Assembly: GCA_002917775.1 (NCBI GenBank)
Contig: KZ627150.1
Coordinates: 674,954-738,953 of the forward strand
Direction of reading: 5' to 3'
From: Glaciozyma antarctica PI12
Lineage: Eukaryota > Basidiomycota > Microbotryomycetes > Kriegeriales > Camptobasidiaceae
DNA length: 64,000 bases
Part shown: positions 12,501-51,890 of the stretch, piece after piece
How the letters are laid out: each line of letters opens with the position of its first letter
How positions within the stretch are numbered: position 1 is the stretch's first letter
Translations under genes and position numbers: made by a program
Notes under the pieces: generated by a model
Told to the model about the DNA's origin: nothing
Seen by the model: only the letters and a program-made list of their open reading frames with translations
Database searches by the model: none

Positions 12501-15500
12501 AGGCTCACCAGCGCTTCGCCTTCCTCAAGGAGATCCTCGCCAACATCCTCGCCGGTTACGACAACCAGTCGATCATGCAGAGCACCATCAAGGAGCTCAT
12601 CTCGGTCCTCCGCGACCCCGAGCTTCCCTACGGCGAGGCGAACGCCGTCCTCTCCACCCTCTCCGGCCGTCTCCCTCCCAACCTCGAGTCGCAGATCCGC
12701 ACCGCGGTCGACAACGCCCAGGCCAACCCCGCCGCCGAATTCCCCTCCGCACGCCTTCGCAAGCTCGTCGACGCCTCTCTCGACCCCCTCCGCCCCGCCG
12801 AGCGCACCTCCTTCCAGGCGGCCCTCGCGTCCCTCGAGGACGTCATCGAGCGCTACAAGTCGGGCCTCAAGCAGCACGAGTGGACGACGCTCGCCAACGT
12901 CATGGTCGCGTACACGGAGACGGAGCTCATGTTCTCCGGAAGGGAGGACGACGTCGTCCTCGAGCTTCGCGAGACGTACCGCGAGGAGCTCGACACGGTC
13001 GTCAAGCTCGTTCTGTCGCACTACAAGGCGGCTTCCAAGAACAGCCTCATCCTCGCCCTCCTCGAGATCGTCAAGGAGAGCGACTCGCTCGCCCTCGTCG
13101 AATCGACCTTCAGCCCCGTCCTCAAGGGCCTCGCCGAGCTCGACTCCAAGGCGACGACCAAGGTTTCGCTCAAGGCGCGCGAGGTCCTCATCCACTGCCA
13201 ACTCCCCTCCCTCGACGAGCGCCTCGTCCAGCTCGAGCAGATCCTCAGGGCGTCGGTCACGCAGACCGTCTACGGCGAGTCGGGTCGCATCGATCGATCC
13301 CCTCGCCAGGACATCCTCAAGGACGTTATCGACTCGCGATTCACGGTCTTCGACGTCCTCCCCACCTTCTTCGGCCACAAGGACCCCTCCATCGCCCTCG
13401 CCGCCCTCGACACCTACGTTCGCCGCGCCTACAAGTCGTACAGCCTCATCAGCATCGACCACATCGAGGCGGACGAGTCGGAAGGCGAGCCTCCCGTCGT
13501 TACGTGGACGTTCAGGATGCGCAAGGCCGCCTCCGAGTCGGGCCCCACGACGCCTTCGGGCGCTGGACCGACCTCGCAGCGCACGGCGTCCTACTCGGAC
13601 CTCACCTTCCTCCTCTCGCGCGGTCAGGACGAGCCGATTCGCTACGGAGCGATGTTCTCGATCACCCACCTCGAAAACTTTGCCGACGAGCTCTCGAGCG
13701 CGCTCCGCCAGATCCCCGATGCCGACAAGGGACGTCTCGCCCCCGCTGCCAGCCACAGTCAGGCTCAGTGGAACGTCATCAACGTCGCCCTCACCGTCCC
13801 CAAGTCGACCGGATCCGTCGACGAGGACGCCCTCCGCACGCGCTTCGCCGAGCACGTCAACGCGCTCAGCGACCAGCTCGATCGTCGCGGCCTTCGTCGC
13901 CTCACCCTCCTCATTTGCCGCGAGGGCGAGTACCCCTCCTACTTCACCCTCCGCAAGCAGGGCGGCATCTGGAAGGAGATCTCCACCATCCGCGACATCG
14001 AGCCCGCTCTCGCCTACCAGCTCGAGCTCGCCCGCCTCTCCAACTTCACCCTCACCCCCTGCCCCACCGAGAACCGCCAAGTCCACATCTACTACGCCGT
14101 CGGCAAGGACAACTCTTCCGACTGCCGCTTCTTCGTTCGCGCTCTCGTGCGCCCTGGACGCCTTCGCGGGAGCATGAAGACGGTCGACTACCTCGTTTCG
14201 GAGAGCGACCGCCTCGTTACCGACGTCCTCGATACGCTCGAGGTCGTCAGCGCTTCTCGTCGCGCTGCTGATGGAAACCACATCTCCGTGGGTCGCTCCC
14301 TCCTCCTCCAACGATTGCAGATCGCTAACACTTCTCTTTTCGCAGCTCAACTTCCTCTACTCCCTCCGCCTCGACTTCGAGGACGTGCAAACCGCTCTCG
14401 CCGGCTTCATCGACCGCCACGGCAAGCGCTTCTGGCGTCTCCGAGTCACGGGCGCCGAGATCAGGATCGTCATCGAGGACGCGCAGGGCAACATCCAGCC
14501 CATCCGCGCCATCATCGAGAACGTCTCCGGCTTCGTCGTCAAGTACGAGGCGTACCGCGAGGTCGTTACGGAGAAGGGCATCACCATCCTCAAGTCGATC
14601 GGTCCTCAGGGCGCCCTCCACCTCCAGCCCGTCGACTTCCCCTACCCGACCAAGGAGTGGCTCCAGCCCAAGCGCTACAAGGCCCACGTCGTCGGCACCA
14701 CCTACGCCTACGACTTCCCCGACCTCTTCCGCCAGTCCATTCGTCGCCAGTGGAAGGCTCTTGGCAAGACGGCGCCCGCGGAGCCCCTCGTCGCGAAGGA
14801 GCTCGTCCTCGACGAGTTCGGCAAGCCCCAGGAGGTTTCGAGGCCGCCGGGAACGAACAACATCGGCATGGTCGGCTGGATCTACACGATGCACACGCCC
14901 GAGTACCCCGGAGGGCGTCGCGTCGTCGTCGTCGCGAACGACATCACGTTCAAGATCGGATCGTTCGGCCCCGAGGAGGATCGCTACTTCTTCGCCATCA
15001 CGGAGCTCGCGCGCGCGTTGGGACTCCCCCGCATCTACCTCTCCGCCAACTCGGGAGCTCGTCTCGGCATCGCAGAGGAGCTCGTCGACATCTTCAGCGC
15101 CGCCTGGGTCGACAAGGGCCGCCCCGAGAAGGGCTTCAAGTACCTCTACCTCACGCCCGAGCGTCTCGGCGAGCTCAAGAACAAGGGCGAGCGGAGCGTT
15201 ATCACCCAGAAGATCGTCGACGACGGCGAGACGCGCTACCAGATCACCGACATCATCGGTCTTCAAGACGGCCTCGGAGTCGAATCCCTCAAGGGTTCCG
15301 GTCTCATCGCCGGAGAGACGTCGCGCGCCTACGACGACATCTTCACCATTACGCTCGTTACCGCACGATCTGTCGGCATCGGAGCCTACCTCGTTCGTCT
15401 CGGTCAGCGCGCCGTCCAGGTCGAGGGACAGCCGATCATCCTCACCGGAGCGGGAGCGCTCAACAAGGTCCTCGGTCGCGAGGTCTATTCGTCCAACCTC

Positions 15501-17171
15501 CAGCTCGGTGGCACGCAGATCATGTACAAGAACGGTGTGTCGCATCTCACCGCCGCCAACGACCTCGAGGGAGTCCTCAGCATCGTCAAGTGGCTCGCCT
15601 TCGTCCCCGAGTCTCGCGGACGACCCCTCCCCATCGCTCCTTCGGCCGACCTCTGGGACCGCCCCATCGACTACACTCCCATCAAGGGCGCGTACGATCC
15701 TCGCTGGTTTATCGCCGGAAAGACGGACGAGGTCGACGGTCGCTGGCTCAACGGCTTCTTCGACAAGGGCTCGTTCCAGGAGACTCTCTCGGGCTGGGCT
15801 CAGACTGTCGTACGTGCTTTTCCCTGCTTCCCGTTTTGAGTCGCGCTAACCTCGACGCTTCTTCAGGTCGTTGGACGCGCTCGCCTCGGTGGAATCCCCA
15901 TGGGAGTTATCGCCGTCGAGACTCGCACGATCGAGCGTATCGTTCCCGCCGACCCTGCGAACGCTTCGTCGATGGAGCAGAAGATCATGGAGGCTGGCCA
16001 GGTTCGTCGTTCTCTGCCGACTCCTCTCGCGCTGGACTGACGCTTTCGCTTTCTACAGGTCTGGTACCCCAACTCGGCTTTCAAGACCGCGCAAGCCATC
16101 TTCGACTTTGATCGCGAGGGCCTTCCCCTCATCATCTTCGCCAACTGGCGTGGATTCTCGGGAGGACAGCAAGACATGTTCGACGAGATCCTCAAGAGGT
16201 GCGTTCCGAGCTCGCTCGTCGTTTTCGAACTTGACTAACGCTTCGCTCCAGGGGATCTCTCATCGTCGACGGACTTTCGACCTACAAGTCGCCCGCCTTC
16301 GTCTACATCGTTCCCAACGGAGAGCTCCGTGGCGGAGCTTGGGTCGTTCTCGATCCCTCGATCAACAAGAACGGCATGATGGAGATGTACCTTAACCTTT
16401 CCTCGCTCTCCCTTTGCCCTCGCTGACGCGCCATTCTCCTCAGGTACGCCGACGAGACCGCTCGCGCCGGAGTTCTCGAGCCCGAGGGTATCGTCGAGAT
16501 CAAGCTCCGCAAGGACAAGATTCTCGCGATGATGGATCGCCTCGACGAGACGTACCGCACCCTCAAGGCGAAGAGCACCGACCCCACTCTCTCCCCCGCC
16601 GACGCCGCTTCCGCCAAGGCTGAGCTCGGCGCACGCGAGAAGGTCCTCCTCCCCCTCTACAGCCAGATCGCCCTCCAGTTCGCCGACCTCCACGACCGAC
16701 CGAACCGCATGAAGGCGAAGGGAACGATTCGCGAGGCGCTCGTCTGGTCCGAGAGTCGCAAGTGCGTTCATCTCTCGTTCGTTTCCTCCTGCGCCGTCGC
16801 TCACGTCCGTTCCCGCTCGCAGGTACTTCTACTGGCGTCTCCGTCGTCGTCTCCAAGAGGAGGAAGCTGGCAAGCGCCTCGCCCTCGCCGACCCCTCCCT
16901 CACTCGCGAAGCCCGCATGGCGATCGTCGAATCCGCCATCTCCTCCGGCTCTCTCGACCTCTCCAACGACCAAGCCGTCACTCTCGCGCTCGAGCAGTCC
17001 AAGGCCGCTATCGATGGCTACGTCAAGGACGCGAGGTCCAACTCGATCTCCGAGACCATCTTGGCCATGTCGAACGAGGACCATGCGGCCGTTGTCGAGG
17101 CGCTCAAGAGGGTGTTGGGCGAGAGGTTGAGTGGCGAGGATTTGGCGACGGTTTCTCGGATTCTCTCATAG
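9542..17171 (+). CDS. ACC1: Acetyl-CoA carboxylase (multidomain, cytosolic type)
   Basis: ACC1 makes malonyl-CoA from acetyl-CoA, the committed step of fatty acid synthesis. Fifteen exons and fourteen short introns give roughly 2,230 residues. Domains in order: biotin carboxylase ([22 protein letters not shown]-grasp loop [27 protein letters not shown]); biotin carrier with EVMKM, whose biotinylated Lys codon is 12251-12253, the last codon of its exon; the long central domain; and the carboxyltransferase pair ([63 protein letters not shown]). The start ATG at 9542 gives [14 protein letters not shown]. The stop is 17169-17171. The frame is clean throughout, unlike several neighbours further right. 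The long minus-strand ORFs opposite it are shadows. Very secure call. Confidence 0.98.
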
Positions 17172-17999
17172 AGCTCTTCGCAGCATCACACTCCTTTGTT
17201 TACTCTCCCTTCCCCCCTCGCAACCTTTGTTTTCAATACCCTCCTTTCGTGGGCCTCGTCTCTTGGAATGGACGAATGATTTTAGATTCAGCTGTCGAGG
17301 AGAGAAGACATTTGGGAGAGCAGCGAGAGTTGAGCCCTGCTCGAGAGAAGCGGGCTGAGAGCTCGGTAGCGAGGTTCGGCTTTAGATGGCCACGGCGTGC
17401 TGAATCGTTCAGTGCTGTGCGCTGAGCTGTTCCTCTTCTGCAGTGCGAGCGGGAGGAGAGTTAAGCCTGAGGAGGTTCCTTGAAGGTGCCTCGAAAGCGG
17501 AACTCGCGCGAAGCGACGAGCGAGGTTCAGCACCGCGGCGAAGGGGGAAGCGAGAGGCGTGATGGAAGTTTTGATAGTGTTCATGTCTGAAGCTCGCTGA
17601 AGAGCTCACGAGAGCAGGGCTGCACGTAGGCCAGCTTTGAGCAGCGTGTTGAAGAGCATTATGGCCGTTGCGATGGAAAAGAGAGCGGTGCAGTGAGCGG
17701 TGTTTGGAGAAGCCAGTGCTGAAGATTATGGATGGAGTCGGAGGAACGCGATAGATCGACGTGAAGAGAGCGGTATGCGCAAGGGACGGCGAGGGCGGAG
17801 GGATCGCGAACTGGAAGAGGGAACCCAGAGAGCAGCTCAACGAGCAGAATCCAGGCACTGCGTGCGTCGACGCTCCCCTCGCAGTACGCGTGAAGCTTGA
17901 CCGGTAAAAAAAATGCGCATTGACTGCAGCTGTTCGTTCAGAAAGTTGGCGAACGAGTCGAAGGGCGGGAAGGTTGTTGTTACATCTCCCCGTTCAACG
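17172..17999. other. Convergent intergenic: ACC1 3' UTR
   Basis: About 830 bp lie between the stops of ACC1 (+) and the DUF1764 gene (-). ORFs on both strands are short and unremarkable. I see only probable 3' UTR sequence. Confidence 0.5.
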
Positions 18000-19131: not shown

Positions 19132-22100
19132 ATGTCACTCCCCTCCCCCAACCCCTTGTCTCACACGCGCGCGCTTCTCCATTACCTCTTCACGACTTAC
19201 TCCCTGGCGAAAGCGTGTTCGATAGCCAGCCGGGCCAGCAGCGGCGCGAGCTCCGCGACTTCCCCGCTCCTGCTCAACGTCGCGAACCTAGCGCTCGAGG
19301 GCGACTCTTCGTCCGCCCTATCGACCGGTACGGCAAGCGAGGACGAGGGTGATGCAGATGGGAGTACGGCGGCCAGTACGGATGGATCGGACGTGGTGAG
19401 CGATGAGGACATGTGGGTAGTTCCCTCTTCCGCGTGATACTTGAAGTGGAGCTGATGTGGGATACTTGCAGGATCGAGAGTGTACTTGATTTGCTCGAGG
19501 ACGACAGCATCGACGACGAGGACATGCCCGAGGCGCTCAAGGACCTCCTCTCCTCCCTCCTCACCTCGAACGACTCTGTACGTCTCCTCCCTCTGCTCCA
19601 CCCACCCAGCTGACCCTTGCGTAGGGACCGATCAACTTTGATCCCCTGATCCTCTCACTCCTCCATCGCCACCGCGAAGACCTTCACCCTTCCTCCACTC
19701 CCGTCCCTCCCCTCCCCTCGAACGGCTCCACGACTCCAGGCCGCGAGCGAGCGACCCTCTCACGCTCCTCCTCGTTCCTCCGCGCCTTCCCGCCTAACAC
19801 CCCGCTCAGCATGACCTCCGTCCGCCCCTCGGGCACCTTCTCCTCCTCCGCCTCTTCCTCCTCCCTCTCGGCGCCCAACTCCCCCTCCCTCCGCTCCGCA
19901 CACCACACCCCCTCCCACTCCCCCTGGTCTTCGCCCCGCCCTACGCCTCTCTCCCTCGCAGCCCTCTCCGCCTCAGCCGTAGAATTCAAGTTCTCCGGCT
20001 CGGCCTCGGAATTCCGTCCCTCCCCCTCCTCGAACCACGGTAGCGTCTCAGGCCACAACACGCCTATCCGTTCGCGCAGTCCTGTCAACGCGCATCAGGC
20101 GCAAGCGACATGGGCTTTCACGTCTTCGCCGCTCGGAACGCCCAAATACGGCGGAGGACTGAGTGGTGGAGGATCTCTCAGCGCTGCGAGTAGTCCGGGG
20201 TACTTTGCCAGACACCTTGAGCCTGGGGCGCTGGGGAGCTTGGGGGGGAAGGAGAGGATCCCGAGGTTGCCGTGGGCGGATGCGACGGATTCGAGCGGGG
20301 AGAGCGAGGACGTCGTCGAGGAGAACGACTGGGCGGAAGAACCTTCGTACCCGAGGCTTGATGAGCAGCCGGCTCAAGCGATGGGAGGAGGGTGGGATCC
20401 GTTTGAGATGAATGAGGAGGGGGAGAGCGCGTATTGGAATGGGGAGAATGGGGAGCAGGGTAGCGAGAACGAGTTGGCGGGGACGCTGGCGGGCCCACCG
20501 GGGTTGGGAGGGATGGGAGCGTACTCGATGACGCCGTTTGATGTCTTGTATTCCGTGTTTGCGGGGTCGGAGGTCTCGGCGGCGGTGTTGGAGGAGGCGC
20601 TTGTGATGACTGGGTGGGATGTGGACGCTGCGATCGAACGTGCGTTCAGTTCTCTTTTCTCTCTCTCCCGTGGTTTCGTTGCTGACTATCCCATTGCTCG
20701 ACGCGCAGACATCATCGACACTCAGTCCAACCCCGATCGTCCTTCTCCCTCCTTCCCCTCCAGTTCCCCTAGTTCCCCTCCCCAGCTCCCCCGAATCATC
20801 AGCGCGAGCGGTTCTCGACCGCTCGTCATCTCACGAGGTTCGATCGACGGGTACGTGGGCGGCAACGGGGGACGAGGGTCGCCGATGGGTGGACAGAAGT
20901 GGGCGAGTGGTAGTAGTACGCCGACGGGGAGTAGCGGGGATGCGGGGAGGGGCGTTGGAGGAAGGGTGTGCAGGTACTACCTCGCGGGGCAGTGCTTGCG
21001 AAGCGATTGCAAGTTCTCGCACGATGTGGGCAAGGCGGTCTGCAAGTACGTCGTCTCTCTTTGCTGGGCAATTATATCGGAGCTGACGCACACACCCTCT
21101 TCTCCTCTCTCCTCTTCTTACTCCCCCTTCCCAGGTTCTGGCTGCGAAACTACTGCTTGAAGGACGGGAACTGCGATTTCTTGCACTCGATTCCTCCTGT
21201 ACGTACTTTCCCGCACCTTGCCACAAGCCAGGACTGACGATGCCTACAGATTATGCGCGCGGACTACGAGCAGCGAGCACAGCGTCGCTCAGCCCCGGCG
21301 CCGGGCTACGACGAGGAGGTCGGCCGCGACGAAGGTCCCGATCTCGACTTTCCCACTCTCGGCCAAGCTCCCCGTGCTCGCCGCCCTCAGAACCAACAGC
21401 AAGTCACTCGGAACGTCGCTCTCGATCCTACTCGCACTCGCTTCAGCGGCGCTGTCAAATTCGGCCGACCGGTCCCCTTCCTCCTATCCCCTCCCCCTCC
21501 TCCCCTCTCCTCAAATGCAGTCGCGCGACTCCCAGCCCCGCTACTCAGCCCGGATCAACCTCCGTCCTCCCGCCCTCCTCCCTACCCTCCCAACCGGCGC
21601 AGCTCTCGCAGCTCTCTACGTGCGTTACCGCTCTTCCTTCCTCGAGCTCGGCGCGAACAGGAACAAATGCCTCGCGCGCGCTTCGCAAGCCTGGCGTTCT
21701 GGAGATGGAGCCGCAGCTCGGAAATGGTCTCGCGAAGCGCAGGATTGGAACAAGCAGGTGGCGATTGAGGGACGGGATTCGGCGAACCGAATTGTGGAGG
21801 AGAGGAAGAAGTTGATTCGCGAGGCGTTGGGGAGGAATGAGGGGAGGATGGGATCGGCGGATGACGCGCCGGATAGGAGGGCGAGAGGGAGGGAACAGGG
21901 TGGGGGAGTTTGTTTGGGAGTCGTGGCGCAGCAGGTCCTGCCCAGGGGGGAGAGGGTCCTCACGGCTGATGAGAGGACGGAAGTCGCGTTGGATTTGCAC
22001 GGTCTTCACCCCGGTTCGTCCCTCCCTCTCACCACCATCATCGCTAACTTCGCACTTCTTAGACGAAGCCGTCTCCTTCATGGGCGACTTCCTCCAATCC

Positions 22101-31138: not shown

Positions 31139-31941
31139 CTATCCCTTCGTGAACGCTCCCCTGCACAACCTCATCGTCAGCTCCGCAACCCGACCTCGAA
31201 CCAAAGATACGCACAACTTCTTCCGCTCGTAGAAGAGATCCGTTCGTGACGCTGCGAAGGGTGGGCGTGAGTAGAACAGCTAGCTAAAGGGGAGCAGACT
31301 ACGCACCTCCAAGGTTGACGATCTTGGGGCAGCCGTCCCTCGACTTTTCAAGCCGTACGCACTCCTGCAGTGTGAACAGCAGTCAGCACACACTTTCCCA
31401 CCTTCGCTGGACCAGCATCAACGCACAGTGCAGTAGTACGCGTCCGAGATTCCTGCGTCAACCTCATCAGCTCCTCCTCTTCCACCAGCAACAGGAGAGA
31501 CGCACCTTGGCCACCACAGATGATACACCGTCCACCATACGTTCCAAAGTTGCACTCGTCGCAGATCCTCACGAGCTCTGCAGGTCGAACGTAGGAGTCG
31601 CAAATGGGGCTGGGTCAACACAAGGTGCTGTTAGCTGGGGTCCTGGGCGGGAAGCGCTGGGATGGGACGCACCACTTTCCGTCACACTTCTCGCACATGC
31701 GTCCGATAGCTGTGAGAGGAGAGGCGGGTTAGCGGTGGAGCAGCATGGAGGCAGGAGTCAGCACGCACCAATGCCGGTTTCTGAGTGGCAATGGAAGGAA
31801 CGCGGTCAGCTGGGATCTCTACAGGATGCTTGGTGGAACTCACGCTTCCGGCACATGACAAGATCCGTGTGATGGCGCGACACTGTGGAGGTGAGCGCGG
31901 TCAGTCGAGGATGGGAGCAGCTGGATGGGAGCGGGCGTACT
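31139..31941 (-). CDS. RDS3: PHF5A/Rds3 splicing factor (SF3b subunit)
   Basis: Rds3/PHF5A is a small zinc-binding subunit of the U2 snRNP SF3b complex. Eight coding exons encode about 110 residues, the family's usual length: [88 protein letters not shown], and [17 protein letters not shown] (stop 31139-31141). All the conserved CxxC pairs are present. The start codon is split by an intron: A at 31941 ends one exon and TG at 31882-31881 begins the next (donor gtacgc, acceptor cacag). Some exons are very small, such as the 12-nt exon for QTGI. Identity is very secure despite the fragmentation. Confidence 0.95.
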
Positions 31942-32234: not shown

Positions 32235-35200
32235 ATGTCAGCCGCCGATTCAGGTCGCTCCACTCCTTCCGCCCACGCTCCCTCCGAAGGCGCAGCGTCT
32301 CTCACCGCTTCCCTCCTCCGCGTGCGTTCCCCGTGCTCACCCTCAGCAAGGACCGCAAGAGCTGACGCCGAACTTCGCATCCTCAGGCCCGCCCTTACCG
32401 CTTCGCGACCCAGTGCGCGACCGTCGAGAACCCGGACGCCAGCCACAAAGACCAGCATGGATCGTCCTCGGTTCCTATCTACCAGACCGCGACGTTCAAG
32501 GGCATGGGAGGGCAATACGATTACTCGAGGAGCGGGAACCCGACCAGGAGCCATCTGGGTGAGTGGGGAAGCTGCGGAGTATGGTGTATAAAGGCGAAGA
32601 GCTAGAGGGAGAAGACGAGGAAGATGGGCATGATCGTGTTGGAGGAGACCAAGCCCCGAAAGGATTGGGGAGGATCTGAAGAGGCGGGCGGCGGTGGCTT
32701 CGAGGCGAGCTGCCTTCGACGTTCTCGCTGCAGCAGGCAGTGAAGCAAGACCAAGAGCTGACTATGCTCTCCGCGCAGAGCATCACATCGCAAAGATCTC
32801 CTCGGCTCAGCACGCGTTCGCCGTCACGTCCGGCATGGGCGCTCTCGATGTCATCTTCCGCCTGCTCAAGCCTGGAGAGGAGATCATTGCCGGCAACGAC
32901 CTCTACGGTGGGTCGAACCGACTTCTCGGCTACCTCAAGACGCACAACGGAATCCACACCCACCACGTCGACACGACCGTCCCCTCCTCCCTCCTCCCCA
33001 TCCTCACCAACCCCGACTCCAAGGTCTCCATGGTCCTCCTCGAAACTCCTACGAACCCTCTCCTCCAGATTGCCGATATCGCCGCCATCGCAGATCTCGT
33101 CCACCAGTACAAGCCTGACGCGCTCGTGGTCGTCGACAACACGATGATGAGCCCGTACCTCCAGCGACCTCTGGAGCACGGCGCAGATATCGTTTACGAC
33201 AGCGGAACCAAGTACCTCAGTGGCCACCACGACTTGATGGCTGGAGTCATTACTTGCAGTCGCGCCGACGTTGCCAAGGTCCGTCCTGGAGCTCTCCCCT
33301 CCCTTCGCAAGCCAAACTGACCTCTGCATTTCAGGGAATCGCCTTCACCATCAACTCGATCGGAAACGGTCTCCCTCCCTTCGACGCCTTCCTCCTCCTC
33401 CGCGGAATCAAGACCCTCGCACTCCGTCTCGACCGCCAGCAGGCGACGACCCAGCTCGTCGCAGAGTACCTCCACGCCCTCGGTTTCAAGGTCAACTACC
33501 CTGGTCTCGCTGGGCACCCTGGCAAGGAGATTCACGATCGTCTGGCGAGTGGAGCTGGAGCGGTGCTTTCGTTCGAAACGGGGGACAAGGCGATGAGTGA
33601 GCGGATCGTTGGAGCTGCGAGGCTCTGGGGAATCAGTGTCAGTTTCGGCTGCGTCAATAGTTTGATCAGTATGCCTTGCCTCATGTCGTACGTTCTTTCT
33701 CCTGGCTGGATCTGTGGTAGCGGTAGCTAATCTCCGCCTGCAGGCACGCCTCCATCGACCCCGCCGTTCGCGCCGCCCGCAACCTCCCCGAGGACCTCAT
33801 CCGCCTTTGCGTCGGAATCGAGGATTCGGAGGACCTTATCGACGACCTCGAAGCGGCGCTCCTCGAAGCAGGCGCCGTTCGCGTCGTGGACGAGGGGGGA
33901 TCGCGAGCTCTTCTTGAGCGCGTGCTGAGTGAGGAGGAGATCACCAAGGATGGAGTGGTCGCGGGACTCGAGGCGCTCAAGATCGATGGAGTGCTGCAGA
34001 GCCTTATCGTTTCTGCGCCTGGCAAGGTCATCTTGTTCGGCGAGCACGCCGTCGTGCACGGAATCGTAAGCTGCTCTCTCCCCCCGGACGCGAGCAGTTC
34101 TGACTTTGTCGCTTTTGCAGACCGCCATCGCCGGCTCCGTCGACCTCCGCTGCTACTGCCTTGCAGAAGCTCGCCGCGACGGCAAGATCAGCCTCAGTCT
34201 CCCCGACATCGCTTTCGAGGCGACTTGGGAGATCGACGACCTCCCCTGGGACCTCGTCGAGCCTTCCTCAAAAGCTCCCCGCGCCGACTCTGTTCCCGAC
34301 GCGGAGCTCCTCGCGCTTTTCGCGGACAAGTACGTCGAGAACGTTCAGCCCGCTGCCGTTCAGGCTGCCCAGGCGTTCCTCTACCTCTACATGAACCTCT
34401 CCGAGGGCAAGCGGCAAGTCCTTTTCTCCGCTCGTCTACCGCACTCTAACTAAGGTATTTTCTCTCCAGCCCTGCCCAAACCTTCACCCTCCGCTCCGCC
34501 CTCCCCATCGGCGCCGGCCTCGGCTCCTCCGCAGCCTTCTCCGTCTGCATCGCCTCCGCCCTCCTCTACACCCACTCGCACCTTCCCCTCCCTCAAGTCC
34601 CCGTCTCTGCAACTCTCCACCACGGTCGTCGAGCCATCACCGCCGAGCAAGCGGAGATCGTCAATGCGTGGGCGTTCACGGCCGAGAAGATCAACCACGG
34701 AACTCCCAGTGGCGTCGACAACACGGTTTCGACGCATGGAGGAGCGATCGGGTTCACGAAGGCGGTCAAGGGCAAGGCGGGAGGACTCGAGGGACTGCAT
34801 GGCTTCAAGTCGATCAGGTTCCTCCTCACCGACACCAAGGTTCCTCGCGATACCAAGACTCTTGTCGCTGGCGTCGCGCGCCGAAAGCTCCAGGTTCGTG
34901 CCTCCTCCTCTTCCCACTGCTCGAGCTCAACTGATGATTGTGATCGTTTGTAGGAGCCCGACCTCGTCAACCCCATCCTCAAGGCCATCCAAACCATCTC
35001 GGACCAAGCTCGTCGCTGCCTCAGCGACTCGGACATGGGACGTTCGACGCAGATCGCCACGCTCGAGAGCCTCATCGACGAGAACCATCGTCACCTCGTT
35101 TCGCTCGGCGTTGGGCACCCCGCGCTCGAGGCGGTCAAGGCGAAGGCTGGAGAGGCGCCTTGGGGACTTCACACGAAGTTAACGGGTGCGGGAGGAGGAG

Positions 35201-35522
35201 GGTGCGCGGTGACGATCATTCCTGATGGTGAGTCCTTTCCTCTCGTTTCTAGTGGATTGTCGGCTGACTCTCTTGCGCAGACTTCCACGAGCCGGCTCTC
35301 ATCGCGCTCAAGGCCGCTCTCGCAGACGACGGATTCGAGACGTACGAGACCACCGTCGGCGGATCGGGCTTTGGAGTCCTCCTTACTCACCCTAGTGCGA
35401 CGTGCGCATCGGCCGAGGGAGGAGCGGAGCGTACGACGGTCCCTGATCCTTCGAGGTTCAGGGAGGCGACGGCGGGAGCGTTAGTGGCGTGGGCTGCGGG
35501 AGGACAGTGGGGGTTCGTGTAG
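32235..35522 (+). CDS. STR3-ERG12: Fusion: cystathionine beta-lyase / mevalonate kinase
   Basis: One gene encodes two complete enzymes. Nine exons (32235-32321, 32387-32558, 32779-33278, 33335-33687, 33744-34065, 34121-34413, 34470-34893, 34954-35227, 35281-35522) sum to 889 codons with the stop. The N-terminal half is a PLP-dependent Cys/Met-metabolism enzyme of the cystathionine beta-lyase type: SVPIYQTATFKGMGGQYDYS, SSAQHAFAVTSGMGALDV, VVVDNTMMSPYLQRPLEHGA and the PLP Lys in DSGTKYLSGHHD, ending RLCVGIEDSEDLIDDLEAAL. A linker of about 45 residues leads straight into LIVSAPGKVILFGEHAVVHG, the start of mevalonate kinase, then PIGAGLGSSAAFSV and TKLTGAGGGGCAVT. The junction lies inside exon 5 with no stop and no in-frame ATG before the kinase. 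Intron 6 is GC-AG (gcaagt, 34414-34469). Roles are methionine/cysteine interconversion and isoprenoid synthesis. Confidence 0.9.
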
Positions 35523-35675: not shown

Positions 35676-37226
35676 ATGGACGAGGACGAGCTTGACCCTG
35701 CCTTCCTCGATATACCTTCCTACGAAGGCGGCAACGGCCTAGGAGAGCTAGGTGGCGGCTTTGGCTACGAGCTACTAGGAGCTGGCTTCGGTTCCGCCCT
35801 CGACGACGACGATCCCTTCTCCCCCTACTCCACACCTCTACCACACCTCTAGATCCCGCCACTCTTCTTCTGAATCATGGCGCGGTGAAGGTGGGAATGG
35901 GAGCCTGGCGGATGCGCTTGGACGGGAGGATGAGGACGACCCCCTTTCGACTCCGCTTCGGCGCTCACGAGGAGCTGGGACGGGCCCGCCGGGGTCGAAT
36001 CGAATGAGTTTGGCGTTCGAGCTGGCAGCGGTTACGCCGGGGAAGGCGTCGAGTCGGGATTTGATGAGGGAGTTGGGGATTGAGGAGGGGGAGGATGACG
36101 AGGGGGACGAGGAGGGGGAAGATGGGGAGGACGAGGATGGGTACGAGGGGGAGGAGGACGACACTTTCTCTACACCACGAGCTGTCGAGATCAACGAGCC
36201 GCAGGACGACTTGTCCCCCTCGTCGACCCCTCTCCGCCGCGCGCAGGCACGCGCTTCCTCCGGCTCCCTTGCGTCCTACGACAACCCCTCCTTCCTCGAA
36301 TCATCGAATTTCCGCGCAGCGAGAAGAGCTCGACGCGGCGCAGCTCCGGTCGTTCGAGAGCTCGCTCGAGACGACGGGCCTCTTCCTCTCCCACCTCCGC
36401 CAACACACTTCTACCGAAATCGACCCTCACGCCTCTCCTAATCCTTCACCTACCACGACGGGCCTCTTCACTTTTATCGAGCCGAAACCTATCGACTATA
36501 CGGATCGTCAGCCGCTGGTTGAGAAGGCTGCGACGGCGGTCATCAAGTCGATGTACGAGGCGGCTAAGCAGCGGGAGGGCCAGGTGCGGGAACTCGTCGA
36601 GATGGAGCGACTGGTTTCGAAGAACGAGGTGGGGTGGCAGACGGCGTTGGCGTCGCTGGAGGAGCTTCCGCGGGACGAGGAGGAGGCCACGCACAAGTTA
36701 GACGTCGTCGAGAACGGGGTTTCGCACGAGGACGAAGGCGAGGAGCCTAGAAGTCCCCTTCTCGCCTTCAGCAGAAGAGGAAGACCCCTTCAGCCTTTCG
36801 ACAAACCACACCCGCAACCCTTCCTTCCTCGAACCCCCACCCATTCCCCCAACTTCCTCCCCCAACTCCCCCTCACTCGCTCGCTCGGAGCTCACCCACC
36901 TCCGCACCATCACCACCTCTCTCATCTCAGCCCTCTCAGCAATCAACGAAGTGACTCAAGTCCACCGCGCCTCGACAGGCGAAGCGGGTCGCAAGCTGCG
37001 CGCCCTCCGGGGCCACCTCGTCACGGTCGAGACGGACCTACAGGGCCTCGCGCGGTCGGAAGAGTTTATCGCGGCGCACGAGGCGAAGGAGTTGAAGTTG
37101 CTTGGAGTGGGCGGGGAGAGGAGGAAGGGACGGTTTGCGGAGGAAGCGAGGGAGGTGATGAGGGGTGTTGAGGTGGAGTTGGAGGAGGGGTGGAGTAGAG
37201 CGCAGGCGGTGCTGGCGGCGGCGTAA
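35676..37226 (+). CDS. Unrecognised acidic, coiled-coil protein (frame interrupted)
   Basis: I do not recognise this protein. The start ATG at 35676 gives MDEDELDPAFLDIPSYEGG, a Gly- and Asp-rich opening. The middle has a strongly acidic run (EEGEDDEGDEEGEDGEDED) and a conserved-looking segment EELDAAQLRSFESSLETTGL. Later parts (VEKAATAVIKSMYEAAKQRE, LARSEELTH-like helices, EVMRGVEVELEEGWSRAQ) look helical or coiled-coil, ending AQAVLAAA and TAA at 37224-37226. The reading frame must shift by one base about three times: near 35850 (at CTC-TAG), 36325 and 36752. No gt-ag intron explains them. A vesicle-tethering or golgin-like role is imaginable but has no direct support. Confidence 0.5.
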
Positions 37227-41180: not shown

Positions 41181-42798
41181 CTACTCCTTCAGCAACAAGT
41201 CAAACATGGCAGCATTCTGCTTCCTCGACTCTGCAAACCTCGGCTCAAAGAACTTTGCCGTCTCCTCGAACCTCGAGCGGTACCACTCGAAATCTCCATA
41301 CGACACGCACTGACTCCACCCCCTCGCCGCGACCAAGAACTCTGCGTCGTCCGACCTATGCCCCTTATCCCACACGGCCGCCTTGATCGCCGAATTGAGT
41401 CTCGCCTCGCTACGAAAGAGGTACTCTGCGACGCCGATCCAAAGCCGAAAGACGGGAGTGGCGGCGAGTGCGAGGTGGTCGAACGGCCGGATTTGGAGCT
41501 CGTGCCAGCAGTCGACCATGGCGAGGAGGGCGAGGTGGGAGTTGGGAGGAGGAGGTGGGGAGGAAGGGTCTCGAGTCCCGACTGTGAATTGGTCGAGGAC
41601 TGAGTCGGAGAGGAGGAGGGGCGGTCCGCGCGAGGAAGGGGAGGAAGGGTCACCGAAGACGAAATCGCGAGCGGCGAGGACGCGGGCGCGTAGTTCGGGT
41701 TCGCGCTCCTCGATCATGAGCTTGAAGAGGTCCGACACGCTGCGCGCGTACTGGTCGATCTGCTTCTTGGCCGCTGGGTTGAGGATCGCAAGGCCGGCGT
41801 AGACGTGCCATTTCGCGGCGTAAATTCGGAGCGTGATGTTGATCTTGACGACTTCGATCCCGCCAATGTAACGTCCCGTCTCCCATGGAAACCGTTCCAT
41901 GCAACGCCAGGCCATGCCCATGCTGCGAAGGGAGGATGAGCGAGCAGTTCGCAGGGAGAGAAGGGCGCAGACGCACCTCAGGAAAGCGGCGTGAGTCACG
42001 GCTTGAGTGTTGGCCGTCACCTCGTCGTGCTCCTCGTAGGTCATGTGCACGAATCGCGACTTGAGAGGCTGGAGGATCCGCTCGACCAGTCGCATCTTCT
42101 CGTCGGGTGCGCGATGCTGGATGAGGATCTGCGACCGATAGAGGTCAGCTTCCAAAAGGTTACAGCAGAGACTGCGACGCACGAGGGCCTGGCCATCGGG
42201 AGCTACGCTGGGGCCGTGGAGAGAGTGGATTGAGATGATGTGGACGTCGGAGGGGAGGTACTTCTCAAACGCTCGTCGTTCAGGCGCCTTGACGGACGTC
42301 TGGCCAGACACAATCGCGCCGACCTTTGTAGCTGTCCGAGGAGCAAGAGGTCAGCTTTGTTGGAGGTGAGAGAGCAGTGAAGGAGACGCACAAGGTCCAA
42401 AGACCGCGACGACCTTGTCGAGGTACTCTGCCTCGACAGAGTAGATGATAAAGTCGCTCTCCCGAGAGACGAGATGTCCATCTCGCATCGCCGTAAGTCC
42501 AGTCCCTGCCAGCCCGCCGTCAGCTCGCACACCACCTCTCGGAGAGCCAAGGCAGCCCCACCTTTGCAGTCCTCCGCGAGCTTGTCGTACTTCTCCGGCA
42601 AGTCGCACACGTTAATCCTATCCCAGCAGCTCCGAATCAGCTCCTGTCGCTGCCGTGCTGCTGCCGCAACAGCAACCACACCGGCGGGAGACCGACGTAC
42701 CGCTTCCACCCTCCCTTGCTCAGTCGATCCGCGTACATCTTCCCCATCTCTCCCATCCCAATGATTCCGATCCGTACTGTCTCCTTCTCGTTGTCCAT
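41181..42798 (-). CDS. TYR1: Prephenate dehydrogenase
   Basis: TYR1 converts prephenate to 4-hydroxyphenylpyruvate with NAD(P)+, in tyrosine synthesis. The start ATG (42796-42798) gives MDNEKETVRIGIIGMGEMGK, with the Rossmann GxGxxG. Following exons carry INVCDLPEKYDKLAEDCKG, SDFIIYSVEAEYLDKVVAVF, VGAIVSGQTSVKAPERRAFE, HIISIHSLHGPSVAPDGQAL, MTYEEHDEVTANTQAVTHAA and ERFPWETGRYIGGIEVVKIN. The C-terminal dimerisation part ends AAMFDLLLKE (stop 41181-41183). About five introns are present. Motifs and length fit the fungal enzyme, which has no fused chorismate mutase domain. Confidence 0.93.
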
Positions 42799-44024: not shown

Positions 44025-46416
44025 ATGTTGAGACAAGCAGCCAGGCCTTTGATCCGCCGAGCTCTCGCAGGAGCACCGCCAGCGACCCGCTTCATCGCGA
44101 CCGCTCCTCCTCCTCTCTCCTCCCGCCTTCGCTCCGCCCTCTTCTCGACCGTCCTCGTCCTCGGCACCGGTGCTTTCCTCGTCTACTCGCACGATTCAAG
44201 AGCAGGAATTCACAAGTAAGCTCAGCTCGCTGGAACCAGACGCCGTGGAGCCCAGCTGACGAACTCCACGCAGATGGGTCTTCCTCCCAGCTCTGGGTCT
44301 CTTGACGGCGAACGATCCGGAGAAGGCGCACGAGGTCGCGGTGCGGATGATTGGGAGTGGGATTGCGCCTGTTGATCAGGGTGTGGACGACGAGATCTTG
44401 GCTTTGGAGGTGAGGCTTGCAAAGTGCTGGATGTGAGGAAGAGGTCGGGAGGACGCGGAGGTGCTGGGAGGGGAATCGTCCTGGGTGACAGGACTCTGGA
44501 GGAGACTTTGCGTGTGTGGATATGCTAGAGAACAAGCTTGAAGCAGCTCTGCTCGAGCCAGCTTCGCGTTCACGAAGAGGAGGAACTGACGCCTTGCTTC
44601 GCAGCTTTGGGGCAAGCAGTTCGCCAACCCTATCGGCATGGCTGCTGGCTTCGACAAGCACGGCGAAGCTATCGATGGATTGTTTGGACTGGGATTCGGC
44701 TACGTCGAGATCGGCAGTGTAACGCCTGAACCTCAGGTGAGTCTTTCTCCTCGCTCTCGATTCAGCATCTCCTGACGTCTGAGGTTGCAGGCTGGAAACC
44801 CCAAGCCTCGAGTCTTCCGCATTCCCGAGACCAACTCGCTCGTCAACCGCTACGGCTTCAACTCGGAAGGCCACGCGACCGTGATGGCACGACTCCGCTC
44901 GCGCGTCCGCCAATTCGTCGCCGACCACTCCAACTCTCTCCCCGCCTCCCTCTTCCCCACCCCTCCCGCGCACGCCCACCCCTCCCACGACGTCGTCGCT
45001 CAGCTCCTCGCTTCTCCCGCTGGCAAAGACGCCCTCGTCCCCGACGCCCTCGGCCTCCCCCGCTCCCTCCACCCCGGTCGCGTCCTCGCCATCAACCTCG
45101 GCAAGAACAAGTCGAGCGACCCCGACTCGATCGACGATTTCGTCAACGGCGTGTACTCGCTAGGACCTTACGCCGACGTCCTCGTCATCAATGTCTCCTC
45201 CCCCAACACCCCCGGCCTCCGCAACCTCCAACGCAAGGGAATGCTCGAAGAGCTCCTCTCTGGCGTCGTCGCCGCGCGAGACTCCCTCGTCGCATCCTCA
45301 TCCTCCTCCTACAAGCCTCCCGTTCTCGTCAAAGTCGCGCCCGACCTCGACGAGGAGCAGCTCCTCGACATCGCCGCCGCCGTCCAGTTCGCCGGGATCG
45401 ACGGCATCGTCGTTTCCAACACGACCATCTCGCGCCCCACGTCAGCAGGAACGAACGCTTCTCTCGCCGAGATGGGTGGTCTTTCGGGTCCCCCCGTCAA
45501 GCCTCTCGCATTGGCGGCGCTTTCGGCCCTCTACAAGGCGACGGACGGCAAGGTCCCTCTCATCGGTTGCGGAGGGATTTCGTCGGGGCAGGACGCGATC
45601 GATTTTGCAAAGGCGGGCGCGACGCTCGTGCAGATGTACACGTCGTTCATCTACGAGGGCGTCGGACTACCGCGCAAGGTCAAGGACGAGGTCGTCGAGA
45701 TCCTCAAGAAGGAGAAGACGACCTGGGCCAAGATCGTTGGATCCGGAGTCCCCAAGCCCCTGCCCGTCGTCGTTCCTGCCCTCGTCGCAGTAGTCGAGGC
45801 ACCAGCAGCCGTCGAGGAGCTCAAGTCGCTCGAAATCGAACCCGTCGTCTCGACTTCGGAGGACGACTTTGAGTTCGGCCTCATCGAAGCGCAAAAGGAG
45901 CTCGAGGAACTCCTCACCCAGCTCTCCGGCGTCGAAACGACTCCAGAACTCGTCGCCGCCGTCGTCCAATCCTCTTCCGATCCCCCCATCGCCGTCCCCG
46001 CCCCCGTCGCCGAATCCCTCCCCGCTCCTACTCCCCTCCCCACCCCCGTCGCCGAAGCTCCTCCGGCCCCTCCAGCAGCTCCTCTCGACCCTCCGTCCCC
46101 TCCACCAATTACGGAATCGCCCTTGGCGATCCCGGCGGTAGCGTTGCTGGATGAGCAGTCGATCGCAGTCTTGCTCGACCCGGCTGTCGCACAGGTCGAG
46201 GCGTGGATCGCACCGGTTGCGGTGGTGGCACCAGTCGTGGAGGAGAAGGTTGTGGTGGAGGAGAAGGTGCCGGTCGTCGAGCCCGTCGCTGTCGTCGAGC
46301 CCGTCGTCGCGCCCGTTGCTGTTGTCGTCGAGCCCGTTGAGGAGAAGGTGGGGGAGAAGAAGGTGGAGGAAAAGCCCAAGCCTGCTGTGAGTGGGGAGGG
46401 CAAGCGATGGGTGTAG
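44025..46416 (+). CDS. URA9: Class 2 dihydroorotate dehydrogenase with long C-terminal extension
   Basis: This is the quinone-linked mitochondrial enzyme that oxidises dihydroorotate to orotate in pyrimidine synthesis. The N-terminus ([20 protein letters not shown]) looks like a mitochondrial presequence and is followed by a membrane segment ([17 protein letters not shown]). Core motifs: [80 protein letters not shown] (catalytic Ser class), [32 protein letters not shown] and [11 protein letters not shown]. The usual family end is reached near 45740, but the frame continues about 220 more codons. That tail is rich in Pro, Val, Ala and Glu and ends SGEGKRWV (stop 46414-46416). Four exons, with a long intron at about 44411-44605. 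Confidence 0.93.
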
Positions 46417-46993: not shown

Positions 46994-49731
46994 ATGTCCC
47001 CCGCACACCACCCCCTCGACCCTCTTACCGCATCGGAACTCACCGAGGCGGCGGCGATCATCGTCGCCCACGTCGAGAAGGAGTTCCCCTCGCAAACGGT
47101 CTACTTCAAGGCTCTCTCCCTCGCACCTCCTCTCAAGGCCGTCCTCGCTCCGTTCCTCGACGCCGTTGCTGCTGGAGAAGCTCCCGCCCCTCTCCCACGC
47201 CAGGCAGAGGCACTCCTCGGCGTTCGTTCGTCTGTCTCCGCAATCGAGTACTACGAGTGCTTCGTCACGCTCGGAGCTGGGCCCAACGTCCCTGGAACGG
47301 TGGATCAGTTCTTCGGGATCGACAAGTCGTTCCACGTCGGCATTGATGCGGAGGAGATGGCTCGCGCGGAGGCAGCGATCCTTGCGAACGAGGAGTTCAA
47401 GGCCGCTATCGCTTCGCTCAGGCTTCCGGAGGGAGCCACCGTCGTTGCCGATACCTGGATCTTTGGTGAGTTGACGCGTGAGGTTGCAAAGCAGCGTTTG
47501 CTGACCTCCTCACGCTCCGCCAGGTGCCGACTCGTTCAAGCCCAACGTTCGCTCCATCCCCTTCATGATCTACTACCGCCTCTCCGACAAGACGGCCTCG
47601 AACCACTACTCCTTCCCTCTCCCTCTATTCCCCTCCATCCGCGCCTCCGACTACTCCCTCCTCGACCTCGGATGGACTGCCATCTTCGGAGGCGAGTCGA
47701 CCGACACCATCGCAGCTCTCCCCGCTGGCTCCTTCCCTTGGAACAAGCTGCAGGCCGTCGAATACGACCACCAGCTTCAGGCTGCTGTGGGTGTTGCGCT
47801 TCGATCGGACCTCAAGCCCTACCGCGTTATTCAGCCCGAGGGAGCGAGCTTTAAGCTCGACGGTCGGGTCGTGAACTGGCAGAAGGTTCGTTCGCGTTCA
47901 TTCGTCCTTCGTGGCGTGTGCTGACCTTTTCCTCAGTGGCAATTCCACATCGGATTCAACTACCGCGAAGGACCCGTCATCAGCGACGTCCGCTACGACG
48001 GTCGCCTCGTCTTCCACCGTCTTTCGGTCTCGGTGCGTTCCCTTCCCTACCTCAGCGATACTTGACGCTTACCTCGTCAATTTCGCAGGACATGACTGTC
48101 CCGTACGGAGATCCGCGCTCTCCCTACCACCGCAAGCAGGCCTTTGACCTCGGAGACGTCGGAGCCGGTCTTTGCGCGAACGAGCTCAACCTCGGCTGTG
48201 ATTGCCTCGGCGAGATCGAGTATCTCTCCTTCGACTTGGTTCGGCACAACGGAGAAGTTCAGCGATTGAACAACGTCGTCTGCGTTCGTGAGTCCGCTGT
48301 TCTGCCACTTCGCTGGCATCTCGCTGATTTTGCCGCTCCCCAGACGAGCAGGATGAGGGAATCGGATGGAAGCACACGTTTGTCTTTGCCTTGCTGCTCG
48401 CTCGTAGGATTCGCATCTAACCACTCGCGCTTCACAGCAACTTCCGTACCGGAGAAGCCTCAGTCACTCGCTCCCGAGTTCTCGTCGTTCGTGAGCCATT
48501 CTTTCTCTTCTTCGAGTCAGAACTTCCGCTAACGCTTGCACCAGAAACCATCATCACCGTCGCCAACTACGTGCGTCAATTTTACTCTCTGATGAGATTT
48601 GGGCTAACCTCGCTCTGTTCTCGCTCAGGAATACATCTTCGCGTGGAAGTTCGACCAGGCCGCTGCGCTCCACCTCGAGACTCGCGCCACCGGAATTCTC
48701 TCTACCTGCCTCATTCTCCCCGGCGAGACCGCCCCCTACGGCACCGTCGTCGCACCCGGAGTCTTCGCACCCAACCACCAGCACCTCTTCTCGGTCCGCA
48801 TCGACCCCGCTATCGACGGACACAACAACACGGTCGTGTACGTCGTCTCCCTTTTTCCGATCCCCTCTTGGCCCACTTTAGTATAAGGTATCTCCCACCC
48901 AGCCAGGTACGGTCGCGATGCATTTCGACNNNNNNNNNNNNNNNNNNNNNNNNNNNNNNNNNNNNNNNNNNNNNNNNNNNNNNNNNNNNNNNNNNNNNNN
49001 NNNNNNNNNNNNNNNNNNNNNNNNNNNNNNNNNNNNNNNNNNNNNNNNNNNNNNNNNNNNNNNNNNNNNNNNNNNNNNNNNNNNNNNNNNNNNNNNNNNN
49101 NNNNNNNNNNNNNNNNNNNNNNNNNNNNNNNNNNNNNNNNNNNNNNNNNNNNNNNNNNNNNNNNNNNNNNNNNNNNNNNNNNNNNNNNNNNNNNNNNNNN
49201 NNNNNNNNNNNNNNNNNNNNNNNNNNNNNNNNNNNNNNNNNNNNNNNNNNNNNNNNNNNNNNNNNNNNNNNNNNNNNNNNNNNNNNNNNNNNNNNNNNNN
49301 NNNNNNNNNNNNNNNNNNNNNNNNNNNNNNNNATTAGGTGGAAAGTACACGAACCAGTCGAGCGGAAACGCAAAGGGAATCCGCTCTTGGGTCGACCGCA
49401 AGGACAACGTCGAGAACACCGAGTGAGTCCTCTCAGTCTCTACTTTGTCGTACATCTGCTAATGACTGCTTACAGCCTCGTTCTCTGGCACACTTTCGGA
49501 CTCACTCACAACCCTCGCATCGAGGACTTCCCCGTCGTAAGCCTTCGCAACCTCGCCCTTCGGCCCCCTCGCTGACGTCCCTTTCGCCCTTCGCAGATGC
49601 CGTGCGAGGTTCACCAGATATCTCTCAAGCCCGTCGATTTCTTCAGCCTCAGCCCGGCGAACGACGTCCCTTCCTCGACGCAGGAGGTCAACCAGTCGAA
49701 GTTGGTGGAGAAGAAGAGCTGCTGCGCGTAG
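46994..49731 (+). CDS. Copper amine oxidase (primary-amine oxidase), interrupted by assembly gap
   Basis: This enzyme oxidises primary amines to aldehydes, releasing ammonia and hydrogen peroxide, using copper and a topaquinone made from its own Tyr. The start ATG at 46994 gives MSPAHHPLDPLTASELTEAA, the N2-domain type opening. The cofactor site is VANYEYIFAWKF (N-Y-E-Y, the first Tyr becoming topaquinone). Copper ligands include the His-x-His in PNHQHLFSVRID and a later His in VLWHTFGLTHNPRIEDFP, and MPCEVHQISLKPVDFF follows near the end. Stop at 49729-49731 after KKSCCA. Part of the catalytic domain is missing because 48930-49332 is all N. No C-terminal SKL-type peroxisomal signal is seen. 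Confidence 0.9.
48930..49332. other. Assembly gap (403 Ns)
   Basis: A run of undetermined bases inside the copper amine oxidase gene. It removes part of the catalytic domain between DGHNNTVV and the exon that resumes with IRWK. Confidence 1.
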
Positions 49732-49941: not shown

Positions 49942-51890
49942 TCAAACCAAGAACTTTGCATTCTGGTAGCTGTCCACCATCGGGTTCGACCCATCCCTCG
50001 TCCTCGTCATCTCCACCTCTCCCCACCTCTCCAAGAACTCGCTATGGTCTAACACACTCAACCCTCTCACCGCCTTCCCACTCCGACGTTCTTTGCTCGT
50101 CCCGAGCGCCTCGATCGCAGGACTCGGTGCTCCGCGCCGGCTGTGCGGGGAGAAAAAGTCGGAACCGACGCGGGGGGATGAGGAAGAGGCGACGGAGGTA
50201 GGGGGGGGAGAAGAGAGGGAGGGGGACATGACGAGGGAGTAGAGGTCGCGGAGGAGGTGGAAGTCGGTTGGGAAGAAGATGTCGAAGAAGCCGGGCTGAA
50301 CGAGGTAGGTCGTGCAGGCCACAGTCTGCGCAATGTTGCTCGTCAGCTCGCTCGTCGCAGAGTGAACACGAACACGCACCTCTCCTTCGTATCGCGTCTG
50401 CACCACCGGCGCAGTCTTGCCAGGAATCGCGTCGGGGAGCGAGGAGAAGTCGGAGAAGAGGATGCGGTGGGCGGGGAACTTGTCTCGCAAGACGTCGAGA
50501 AGCATGAGCTGCTTGGTGGGGAGGAATTCGGGAGGTGTGAGGTTGGGAGCGAAGGGGACAGTGGCGAAGATCTTGCGAAGGAGAGGATATTGCGGAGAGG
50601 ATGGCGTTGAGGATGGGGTTCGAGCGTCGTCGACGAGGATCCGGTGTACGAGCTCGAAGTCGAAGGTAGCGTGCGATAAGGGGGTCGGTGACGGGTTCGT
50701 AGAGCTCTGTAAAGTCGCCAGTCGAATCGACAGAGACGACGCATTGAAGCGGTTCGTGGTCGAGAGTCGTGTACCGAATCACATCGTGCGAGAAGTTGTC
50801 CTGAGGTCGCAAGGAGCTATTAGCACTGGTGCCAGGCGCGAAGAAAGCACATGAACTCACCAGGACCTCGAGTGCGAGGAAGAAGCAAGGTTCCGGCACG
50901 ACGCGCTCCCAGTCAAAGATGCTTCCTCCCAGTACCTCGACCTTGCCCGAGTGTCCCTTCCGCTTCGCCGGGCCCTTCATCGACGCCTTTCCATCCCCTC
51001 CCTTCGCTCGTCCCCTCTGCAACCCCTGCAGCCGCTCGCTAATCTCCACAATCCGGTACCTCGTCCGGTCATACACCTCTGGCTCCTCCTCCGCGATGTA
51101 GTCGAGGATATCTCCCATGAGCGTTCCGTTTCCAGCTCCAATCTCGTAGATGATAAGGTCCTCATAGGGGTAGAGATTGAGCTTGTACTCCGCGACGATG
51201 TAGCGAGCGATCGCTCGTCCGTACCAAGGCTTCGCATGCTTAACATCAGCTGCCATTCGGCCCACACGCAGCAGGTACTCCAACTCACCTTGAACAGCTC
51301 CGTAGGCGTGTGCCAGACCTGGCGTCCAGGTCCCTTGCCGACCTTCCCATCCGTCGCCTCAAACTCCCCGTACCTCCTCGCAATCTCGTCCTCAAACTCG
51401 CGCGAGCTCCGCATCTGCGTAAAGTCGAAGCCCTCCGCCCGGTTCCGCAGGATCCCAGAAGGAGTCCCAGACCGCTCGACTTGCCAGGGATCTCGTCGGG
51501 GTCGAAGATGACGGCCTGAGTCGAGAAGTAGCCATCTATTCGCGCCGAGCATCAGTTCGTGCACTCCCCAGCTGGCAGCCACCACCACAGGCCGAGCTCA
51601 CAGTGCGGGTTGTAGAGGCAGTCGTCGATAAAGTCGCGCGCCAGCATCTTGACTCGTCGCGGCGGGGTAGAGCGGTTGGCGATATCCTTGGCCGTGACGA
51701 GGCGGTAGTTAGCCTGGTCTGGGTCAGGCGTAGAGTCGAACGGGTTGGCGACGTAGTTGTAGCGGGGCTCGTTGCGCTTCGTCGTCGGAGGACTCTTGGA
51801 GGAGGAGGGAGTCGTCGAGAAGGGGCGGAGAGGCTTGTAGGCCGTTGCTGTGAGCCGCAGAGCTTTCTGCCCACATCGTAGAGTCGCCAT
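49942..51890 (-). CDS. NDUFAF7: Mitochondrial NDUFAF7/MidA-type methyltransferase
   Basis: This family dimethylates an arginine of a complex I subunit and is needed for complex I assembly in mitochondria. The start ATG (51888-51890) gives MATLRCGQKALRLTATAYKP, an Arg/Ser/Thr-rich presequence-like start. Then come LARDFIDDCLYNPHCGYFST, VWHTPTELFK, PWYGRAIARYIVAEYKLNLY, the SAM motif IIYEIGAGNGTLMGDILDYI, EVLDNFSHDVIRY and DFTELYEPVTDPLIARYL. Later conserved blocks are FATVPFAPNLTPPEFLPTKQ, ILFSDFSSLPDAIPGKTAPV and YLVQPGFFDIFFPTDFHLLR. The stop is 49942-49944. The frame changes twice outside introns: between QAVIFDPDE and ILRNRAEGFDF (about 51440-51510), and after IARYL (about 50590-50670). 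Confidence 0.85.

What the first reader, a model, noticed from the sequence alone, without database searches (positions are those of the whole stretch)
32235..35522. One gene encodes cystathionine beta-lyase fused to mevalonate kinase
Exon 5 (33744-34065) runs without a stop from the end of the PLP enzyme (RLCVGIEDSEDLIDDLEAAL) through a ~45-residue linker into the mevalonate kinase start (LIVSAPGKVILFGEHAVVHG). No in-frame ATG precedes the kinase. All nine exons sum to 2,667 nt, exactly 889 codons. In well-known fungi these are separate genes (STR3-type and ERG12) in unrelated pathways: sulfur amino acids and isoprenoids. A bifunctional protein could couple the two pathways. It also raises a localisation puzzle, since cystathionine beta-lyase and mevalonate kinase can both be peroxisomal or cytosolic in different eukaryotes. 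I know of no description of this fusion.
Basis: partly seen in the sequence, partly recalled or inferred. Interest (0 to 1): 0.85.

Follow-up and report, generated by a model that had tools for sequence, protein, structure and literature searches.

The report
Known basidiomycete metC-MVK fusion gene
This fungal gene does appear to make one protein that joins a methionine-pathway enzyme to a sterol-pathway enzyme, but the same fusion has been reported from many basidiomycete fungi since 2012, so it is a known oddity rather than a discovery.

Summary
Nine exons (32235-35522) join in frame to an 888-residue protein. Residues 48-414 pass the NCBIfam cut-off for cystathionine beta-lyase, and 462-804 the one for mevalonate kinase. 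Exon 5 runs unbroken through a 47-residue linker with no in-frame ATG. The novelty claim does not hold. Liu et al. 2012 (PMC3342255) reported this 'metC-MVK' gene, average about 886 residues, in 12 basidiomycetes but not Laccaria bicolor, as the only mevalonate kinase homologue there. PMC3468542 (2012) found it in all basidiomycetes examined except Postia placenta. PMC3720577 and PMC4129116 report it again. This is one more member. Most likely it is a two-domain protein whose two active sites work independently; that is inferred, not shown. No paper passage I saw explains why it was kept. One testable side-point: yeast Str3p is peroxisomal and ends in SKL, while this fusion shows no PTS1 and no N-terminal PTS2 pattern, so the fusion may have made the lyase cytosolic.

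The parts
32235..35522 (+). whole coding span of the fused gene, 9 exons, 888 aa
   Evidence: splice chain, frame, length 2667 nt; 93.8 kDa
32441..33873 (+). cystathionine beta-lyase domain, residues 48-410 in Pfam PF01053 and 48-414 in TIGR01329 (the latter runs 4 residues into what is here called the linker); PLP lysine equivalent K231
   Evidence: introns lie inside this span; the role of K231 is family knowledge (recalled)
33744..34065 (+). exon 5: end of lyase, linker, start of kinase in one open frame
33862..34002 (+). 47-residue linker (residues 411-457), no in-frame ATG; the two ATGs at 33950 and 33986 are out of frame
34003..35522 (+). mevalonate kinase part (TIGR00549 match residues 462-804), with APGKVILFGEHAVVHG, PIGAGLGSSAA, GTPSGVDNTVST and KLTGAGGGGCA motifs
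34414..34469 (+). intron 6, GC-AG type in this model

Best explanation
The gene is the basidiomycete metC-MVK (STR3-ERG12) fusion: one polypeptide whose N-terminal half splits cystathionine into homocysteine, pyruvate and ammonia, and whose C-terminal half phosphorylates mevalonate with ATP. Shown here: one frame-consistent gene model, two family-level domains, conserved motifs. Reported by others: the fusion is widespread in Basidiomycota and was the only mevalonate kinase homologue found there. Inferred: both sites are active and work independently, the lyase half sets the oligomer (a tetramer in this enzyme family, recalled) and carries four kinases, and the fusion persists because the kinase has no other copy or start, so it cannot easily be separated again. 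Any benefit from linked expression (sterol C24-methylation uses methionine-derived SAM, recalled) is conjecture.
For:: nine exons in one frame, 888 aa. TIGR01329 cystathionine beta-lyase 520.4 bits (cut-off 487.5) over residues 48-414, and TIGR00549 mevalonate kinase 215.2 bits (cut-off 163.05) over 462-804; best solved relatives are a cystathionine beta-lyase (1ibj, E 3.3e-104) and a mevalonate kinase (2r3v, E 1.5e-77). PMC3342255 reports metC-MVK in 12 basidiomycetes, mean about 886 aa, only K00869 homologue and only gene whose best hit is K01760. PMC3468542, the same from STR3 orthologues of 81 fungal genomes, with no stand-alone kinase seen in basidiomycetes (called preliminary by the authors). 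PMC3720577, a mycelial unigene with the same domain order. PMC4129116, 918 aa, only mevalonate kinase match.
Against: No transcript or protein data for this gene, and no enzyme assay for any member in what I read. PMC8058980 gives transcript and protein levels for a mevalonate kinase in R. toruloides and does not say in the passages shown that it is fused. Exceptions are reported: Laccaria bicolor and Postia placenta. No genome is held for the window, so 'only copy' was not tested in this organism. Openness of the linker alone is not unusual (1521 of 5000 shuffles). PMC5922974 says several insertions mapped in R. toruloides STR3, 'suggesting non-essentiality', though strains were too rare to score. 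If that STR3 is the fusion, this is hard to square with it being the only, essential mevalonate kinase; I could not see where in the gene those insertions lie.
Confidence: 0.93

Rival explanations
1. Two adjacent genes read as one (gene-prediction artefact): the lyase ends inside exon 5 and a separate kinase transcript starts nearby.
For: 141 open bases are not improbable by chance (1521 of 5000 shuffles open); no cDNA was available; the PMC8058980 passages on R. toruloides mevalonate kinase do not mention a fusion.
Against: No stop in frame from lyase to kinase and no ATG start that gives a whole kinase; no AATAAA, ATTAAA or TATAA in 33700-34100 and no TATA[AT]A in 33300-34003; the same fusion published for other basidiomycetes and as an assembled unigene.
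Confidence: 0.03
2. A fused transcript whose protein is cut in the linker, giving two separate enzymes.
For: A 47-residue linker separates two complete domains.
Against: I saw no protease site or 2A-like peptide in the linker by eye; no search for such sites was run, and there is no experiment.
Confidence: 0.1
3. One half is catalytically dead and serves as a scaffold or regulator of the other.
For: Fusions of unrelated enzymes sometimes keep one half for regulation (general knowledge).
Against: Both halves score above curated equivalog cut-offs, the PLP lysine K231 and kinase K465, E648, D659 are present (roles recalled), and no other kinase is reported in the basidiomycetes examined.
Confidence: 0.05

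Closest known systems
metC-MVK fusion of basidiomycetes (Liu et al. 2012, PMC3342255; also PMC3468542, PMC3720577, PMC4129116)
   Same: Domain order lyase then kinase, length (888 here, mean about 886 reported), one polypeptide
   Different: No difference found, but no member's sequence could be fetched for comparison. The 16-residue kinase insert reported in 7 of 12 species could not be compared because the figure is not held
Cystathionine beta-lyase Str3 / MetG / met-2 of ascomycetes
   Same: Lyase half passes TIGR01329
   Different: Yeast Str3p is separate and ends in SKL; here the lyase C-terminus is internal and the fusion ends in GFV
Mevalonate kinase Erg12 / human MVK
   Same: Kinase half aligns with the human and rat enzymes over residues 4-379 of 396 and 4-378 of 395
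   Different: No start codon of its own; it follows the lyase

Membership tests
basidiomycete metC-MVK fusion | N-terminal cystathionine beta-lyase and C-terminal mevalonate kinase in one reading frame | tested here: met
basidiomycete metC-MVK fusion | length near 886 aa, half and half | tested here: met
   888 aa, boundary between residues 410 and 462
basidiomycete metC-MVK fusion | only mevalonate kinase homologue in the genome | not testable with these tools
   no genome held for the window
basidiomycete metC-MVK fusion | host is a basidiomycete | tested here: inconclusive
cystathionine beta-lyase (TIGR01329) | score above curated cut-off | tested here: met
   520.4 against 487.5 bits
cystathionine beta-lyase (TIGR01329) | enzyme activity | not testable with these tools
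   needs assay or complementation
mevalonate kinase (TIGR00549) | score above curated cut-off | tested here: met
   215.2 against 163.05 bits
mevalonate kinase (TIGR00549) | enzyme activity | not testable with these tools
   needs assay or complementation

The most novel reading that the evidence does not exclude
The ancestral fusion was a relocation event: joining the kinase to the lyase's C-terminus removed or buried a peroxisomal PTS1 of the kind yeast Str3p carries, so in basidiomycetes the lyase became cytosolic (or the kinase was carried to a new place), and homocysteine supply for SAM-dependent sterol methylation is physically tied to mevalonate use.
Probability: 0.2. Interest if true: 0.5.

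Novelty: already known. Interest (0 to 1): 0.15.

Why it matters
A widespread fusion of enzymes from two unrelated pathways is curious. It is also practically relevant, since a mutant of one function in a basidiomycete risks hitting the other: STR3 insertions in Rhodotorula, or kinase engineering for terpenes. The fusion itself has been in print since 2012. What remains open in what I read is why it was kept and where the protein sits in the cell.

Tried and rejected
Looked for the fusion outside fungi with the exon 5 peptide (107 aa). In viral contigs, 80 stretches matched a pattern and none encoded a relative. By the matched ranges printed, 0 of those 80 cover both the lyase end (query residues 1-39) and the kinase start (query residue 87 on); each matches one side. 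The other 95 relatives were not seen. No fungal relative could be fetched: the metagenome cap was 0 and no eukaryote collection is held. Two qPCR primers for R. mucilaginosa ERG12, copied from PMC6780508, gave 0 matches each with up to 3 mismatches; a primer lying across an intron would also be missed. Bacterial promoter and terminator scan of 33700-34100: 0 and 0, of little meaning in a eukaryote. Two R. toruloides terpene papers (PMC8058980, PMC13063562; passages only) and a 2026 mevalonate pathway review (PMC13412983, passages) did not mention the natural fusion in the passages shown.

Paper searches for prior description or follow-up: 183 papers, 30 listed; 47, 30 listed; 7; 2; 19, 15 listed; 0; 2,622, 5 listed; 7; 10, 9 listed; (23, 15 listed) was for peroxisomes. 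The library holds open-licence PMC papers only, so absence of a functional study there is not proof of absence. Papers seen: passages of PMC3468542 and its section 12 in full; passages of PMC3342255 and its section 10 in full; passages only of PMC3720577, PMC4129116, PMC5922974, PMC8058980, PMC13063562, PMC6780508, PMC9929924, PMC3716945, PMC12904895 and PMC13412983. The rest were search listings only.

Full report
Observation. The gene model was rebuilt from the raw sequence. Nine exons between 32235 and 35522 join in frame to 2,667 nt, 889 codons with the stop, 888 residues and 93.8 kDa. Exon 5 (33744-34065) carries the end of the lyase, a linker of 47 residues (411-457) and the start of the kinase. 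The last in-frame Met before the kinase is M370, inside the lyase; the next is M569, beyond the first kinase motif. Two ATGs in the linker are out of frame. One intron of eight, number 6, is GC-AG.

Strength. Openness of the linker alone is not rare: 1521 of 5000 shuffles are open too. Its codon-bias score lies above all 160 intron-derived windows, but reverse-strand frame 0 scores higher. The case rests on the domains and splice chain. Pfam finds Cys_Met_Meta_PP (residues 48-410) and the N- and C-terminal GHMP kinase domains. NCBIfam gives cystathionine beta-lyase (520.4 bits, cut-off 487.5) and mevalonate kinase (215.2 bits, cut-off 163.05), the only two of the 25 rows shown that pass their cut-offs (49 families matched, so 24 were not seen). 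The best-scoring solved structures are the cystathionine beta-lyase 1ibj and the mevalonate kinase 2r3v.

Already in print. Liu et al. 2012 (PMC3342255, section 10 read in full) report a fusion gene they call metC-MVK in 12 basidiomycetes, except Laccaria bicolor. Its mean length is about 886 aa, it is the only homologue of mevalonate kinase K00869 in the basidiomycetes analysed, and no such protein was found in the other species they analysed. A discussion passage places its origin in the ancestor of Basidiomycota. PMC3468542 (2012; passages and section 12) used STR3 orthologues from 81 fungal genomes. It reports the extra kinase region in all basidiomycetes examined except Postia placenta, no stand-alone kinase in basidiomycetes (a preliminary analysis, in its words), and separate, unclustered genes in ascomycetes. 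PMC3720577 (2013, passages) reports the fusion as a unigene in Pleurocybella porrigens mycelium. PMC4129116 (2014, passage) reports a 918-residue copy in Lignosus rhinocerotis. I did not see the species lists, so I cannot say whether close relatives of this organism were included.

How it works. The most likely reading is a two-domain enzyme: one half makes homocysteine from cystathionine, the other phosphorylates mevalonate, each at its own site. Both halves keep family motifs, including K231, K465, E648 and D659 (the roles of these residues are recalled, not tested). No activity data were found in the passages I read; the authors of PMC3468542 say the significance remains to be determined, and those of PMC3342255 that the study is going on. 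A coupling of methionine supply to sterol synthesis is conjecture.

Two open points. First, location: yeast Str3p is called a peroxisomal PTS1 protein with an SKL tripeptide (PMC9929924, passage), and a 2026 review says that fungal mevalonate kinase is mainly cytosolic (PMC13412983, passage). The fusion ends in GFV, has no PTS1 by a simple pattern and no PTS2 pattern in its first 80 residues; the only PTS2-like string (465-473) is internal and part of the kinase's first motif (patterns recalled). Second, essentiality: PMC5922974 says multiple insertions mapped in Rhodosporidium toruloides STR3, suggesting non-essentiality, with abundance too low to score. If that gene is the fusion and the only kinase, this needs explaining. 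I could not see the insertion sites.

Limits. Verdict: real, correctly read at the sequence level, already known; interest low, apart from the unexplained reason why it was kept.

Noticed in passing
window 34414-34469: Intron 6 is a GC-AG intron in this model (donor GCAAGT); the GT four bases downstream would shift the frame with this acceptor.
   Followed up: yes
window about 31500-31600, minus strand: A cysteine-rich stretch reading [33 protein letters not shown] looks like the splicing factor PHF5A/Rds3 (name recalled, not searched), on the strand opposite to the fusion gene.
   Followed up: no
window 12074-17422, plus strand: Acetyl-CoA carboxylase central, biotin and carboxyl transferase domains in two open frames.
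   Followed up: no
window 44776-46413 plus; 48421-49572 plus; 50045-51358 minus: Pfam matches to dihydroorotate dehydrogenase, a short part of copper amine oxidase, and Methyltransf_28.
   Followed up: no
window 9975-12056 minus, 19625-21157 plus, 36068-37168 plus, 41184-42350 minus, 60331-61806 plus: Five of the ten long open frames scanned have no Pfam match at E 0.001; the first overlaps a plus-strand open frame at 10801-12225 and may be just an open shadow frame.
   Followed up: no
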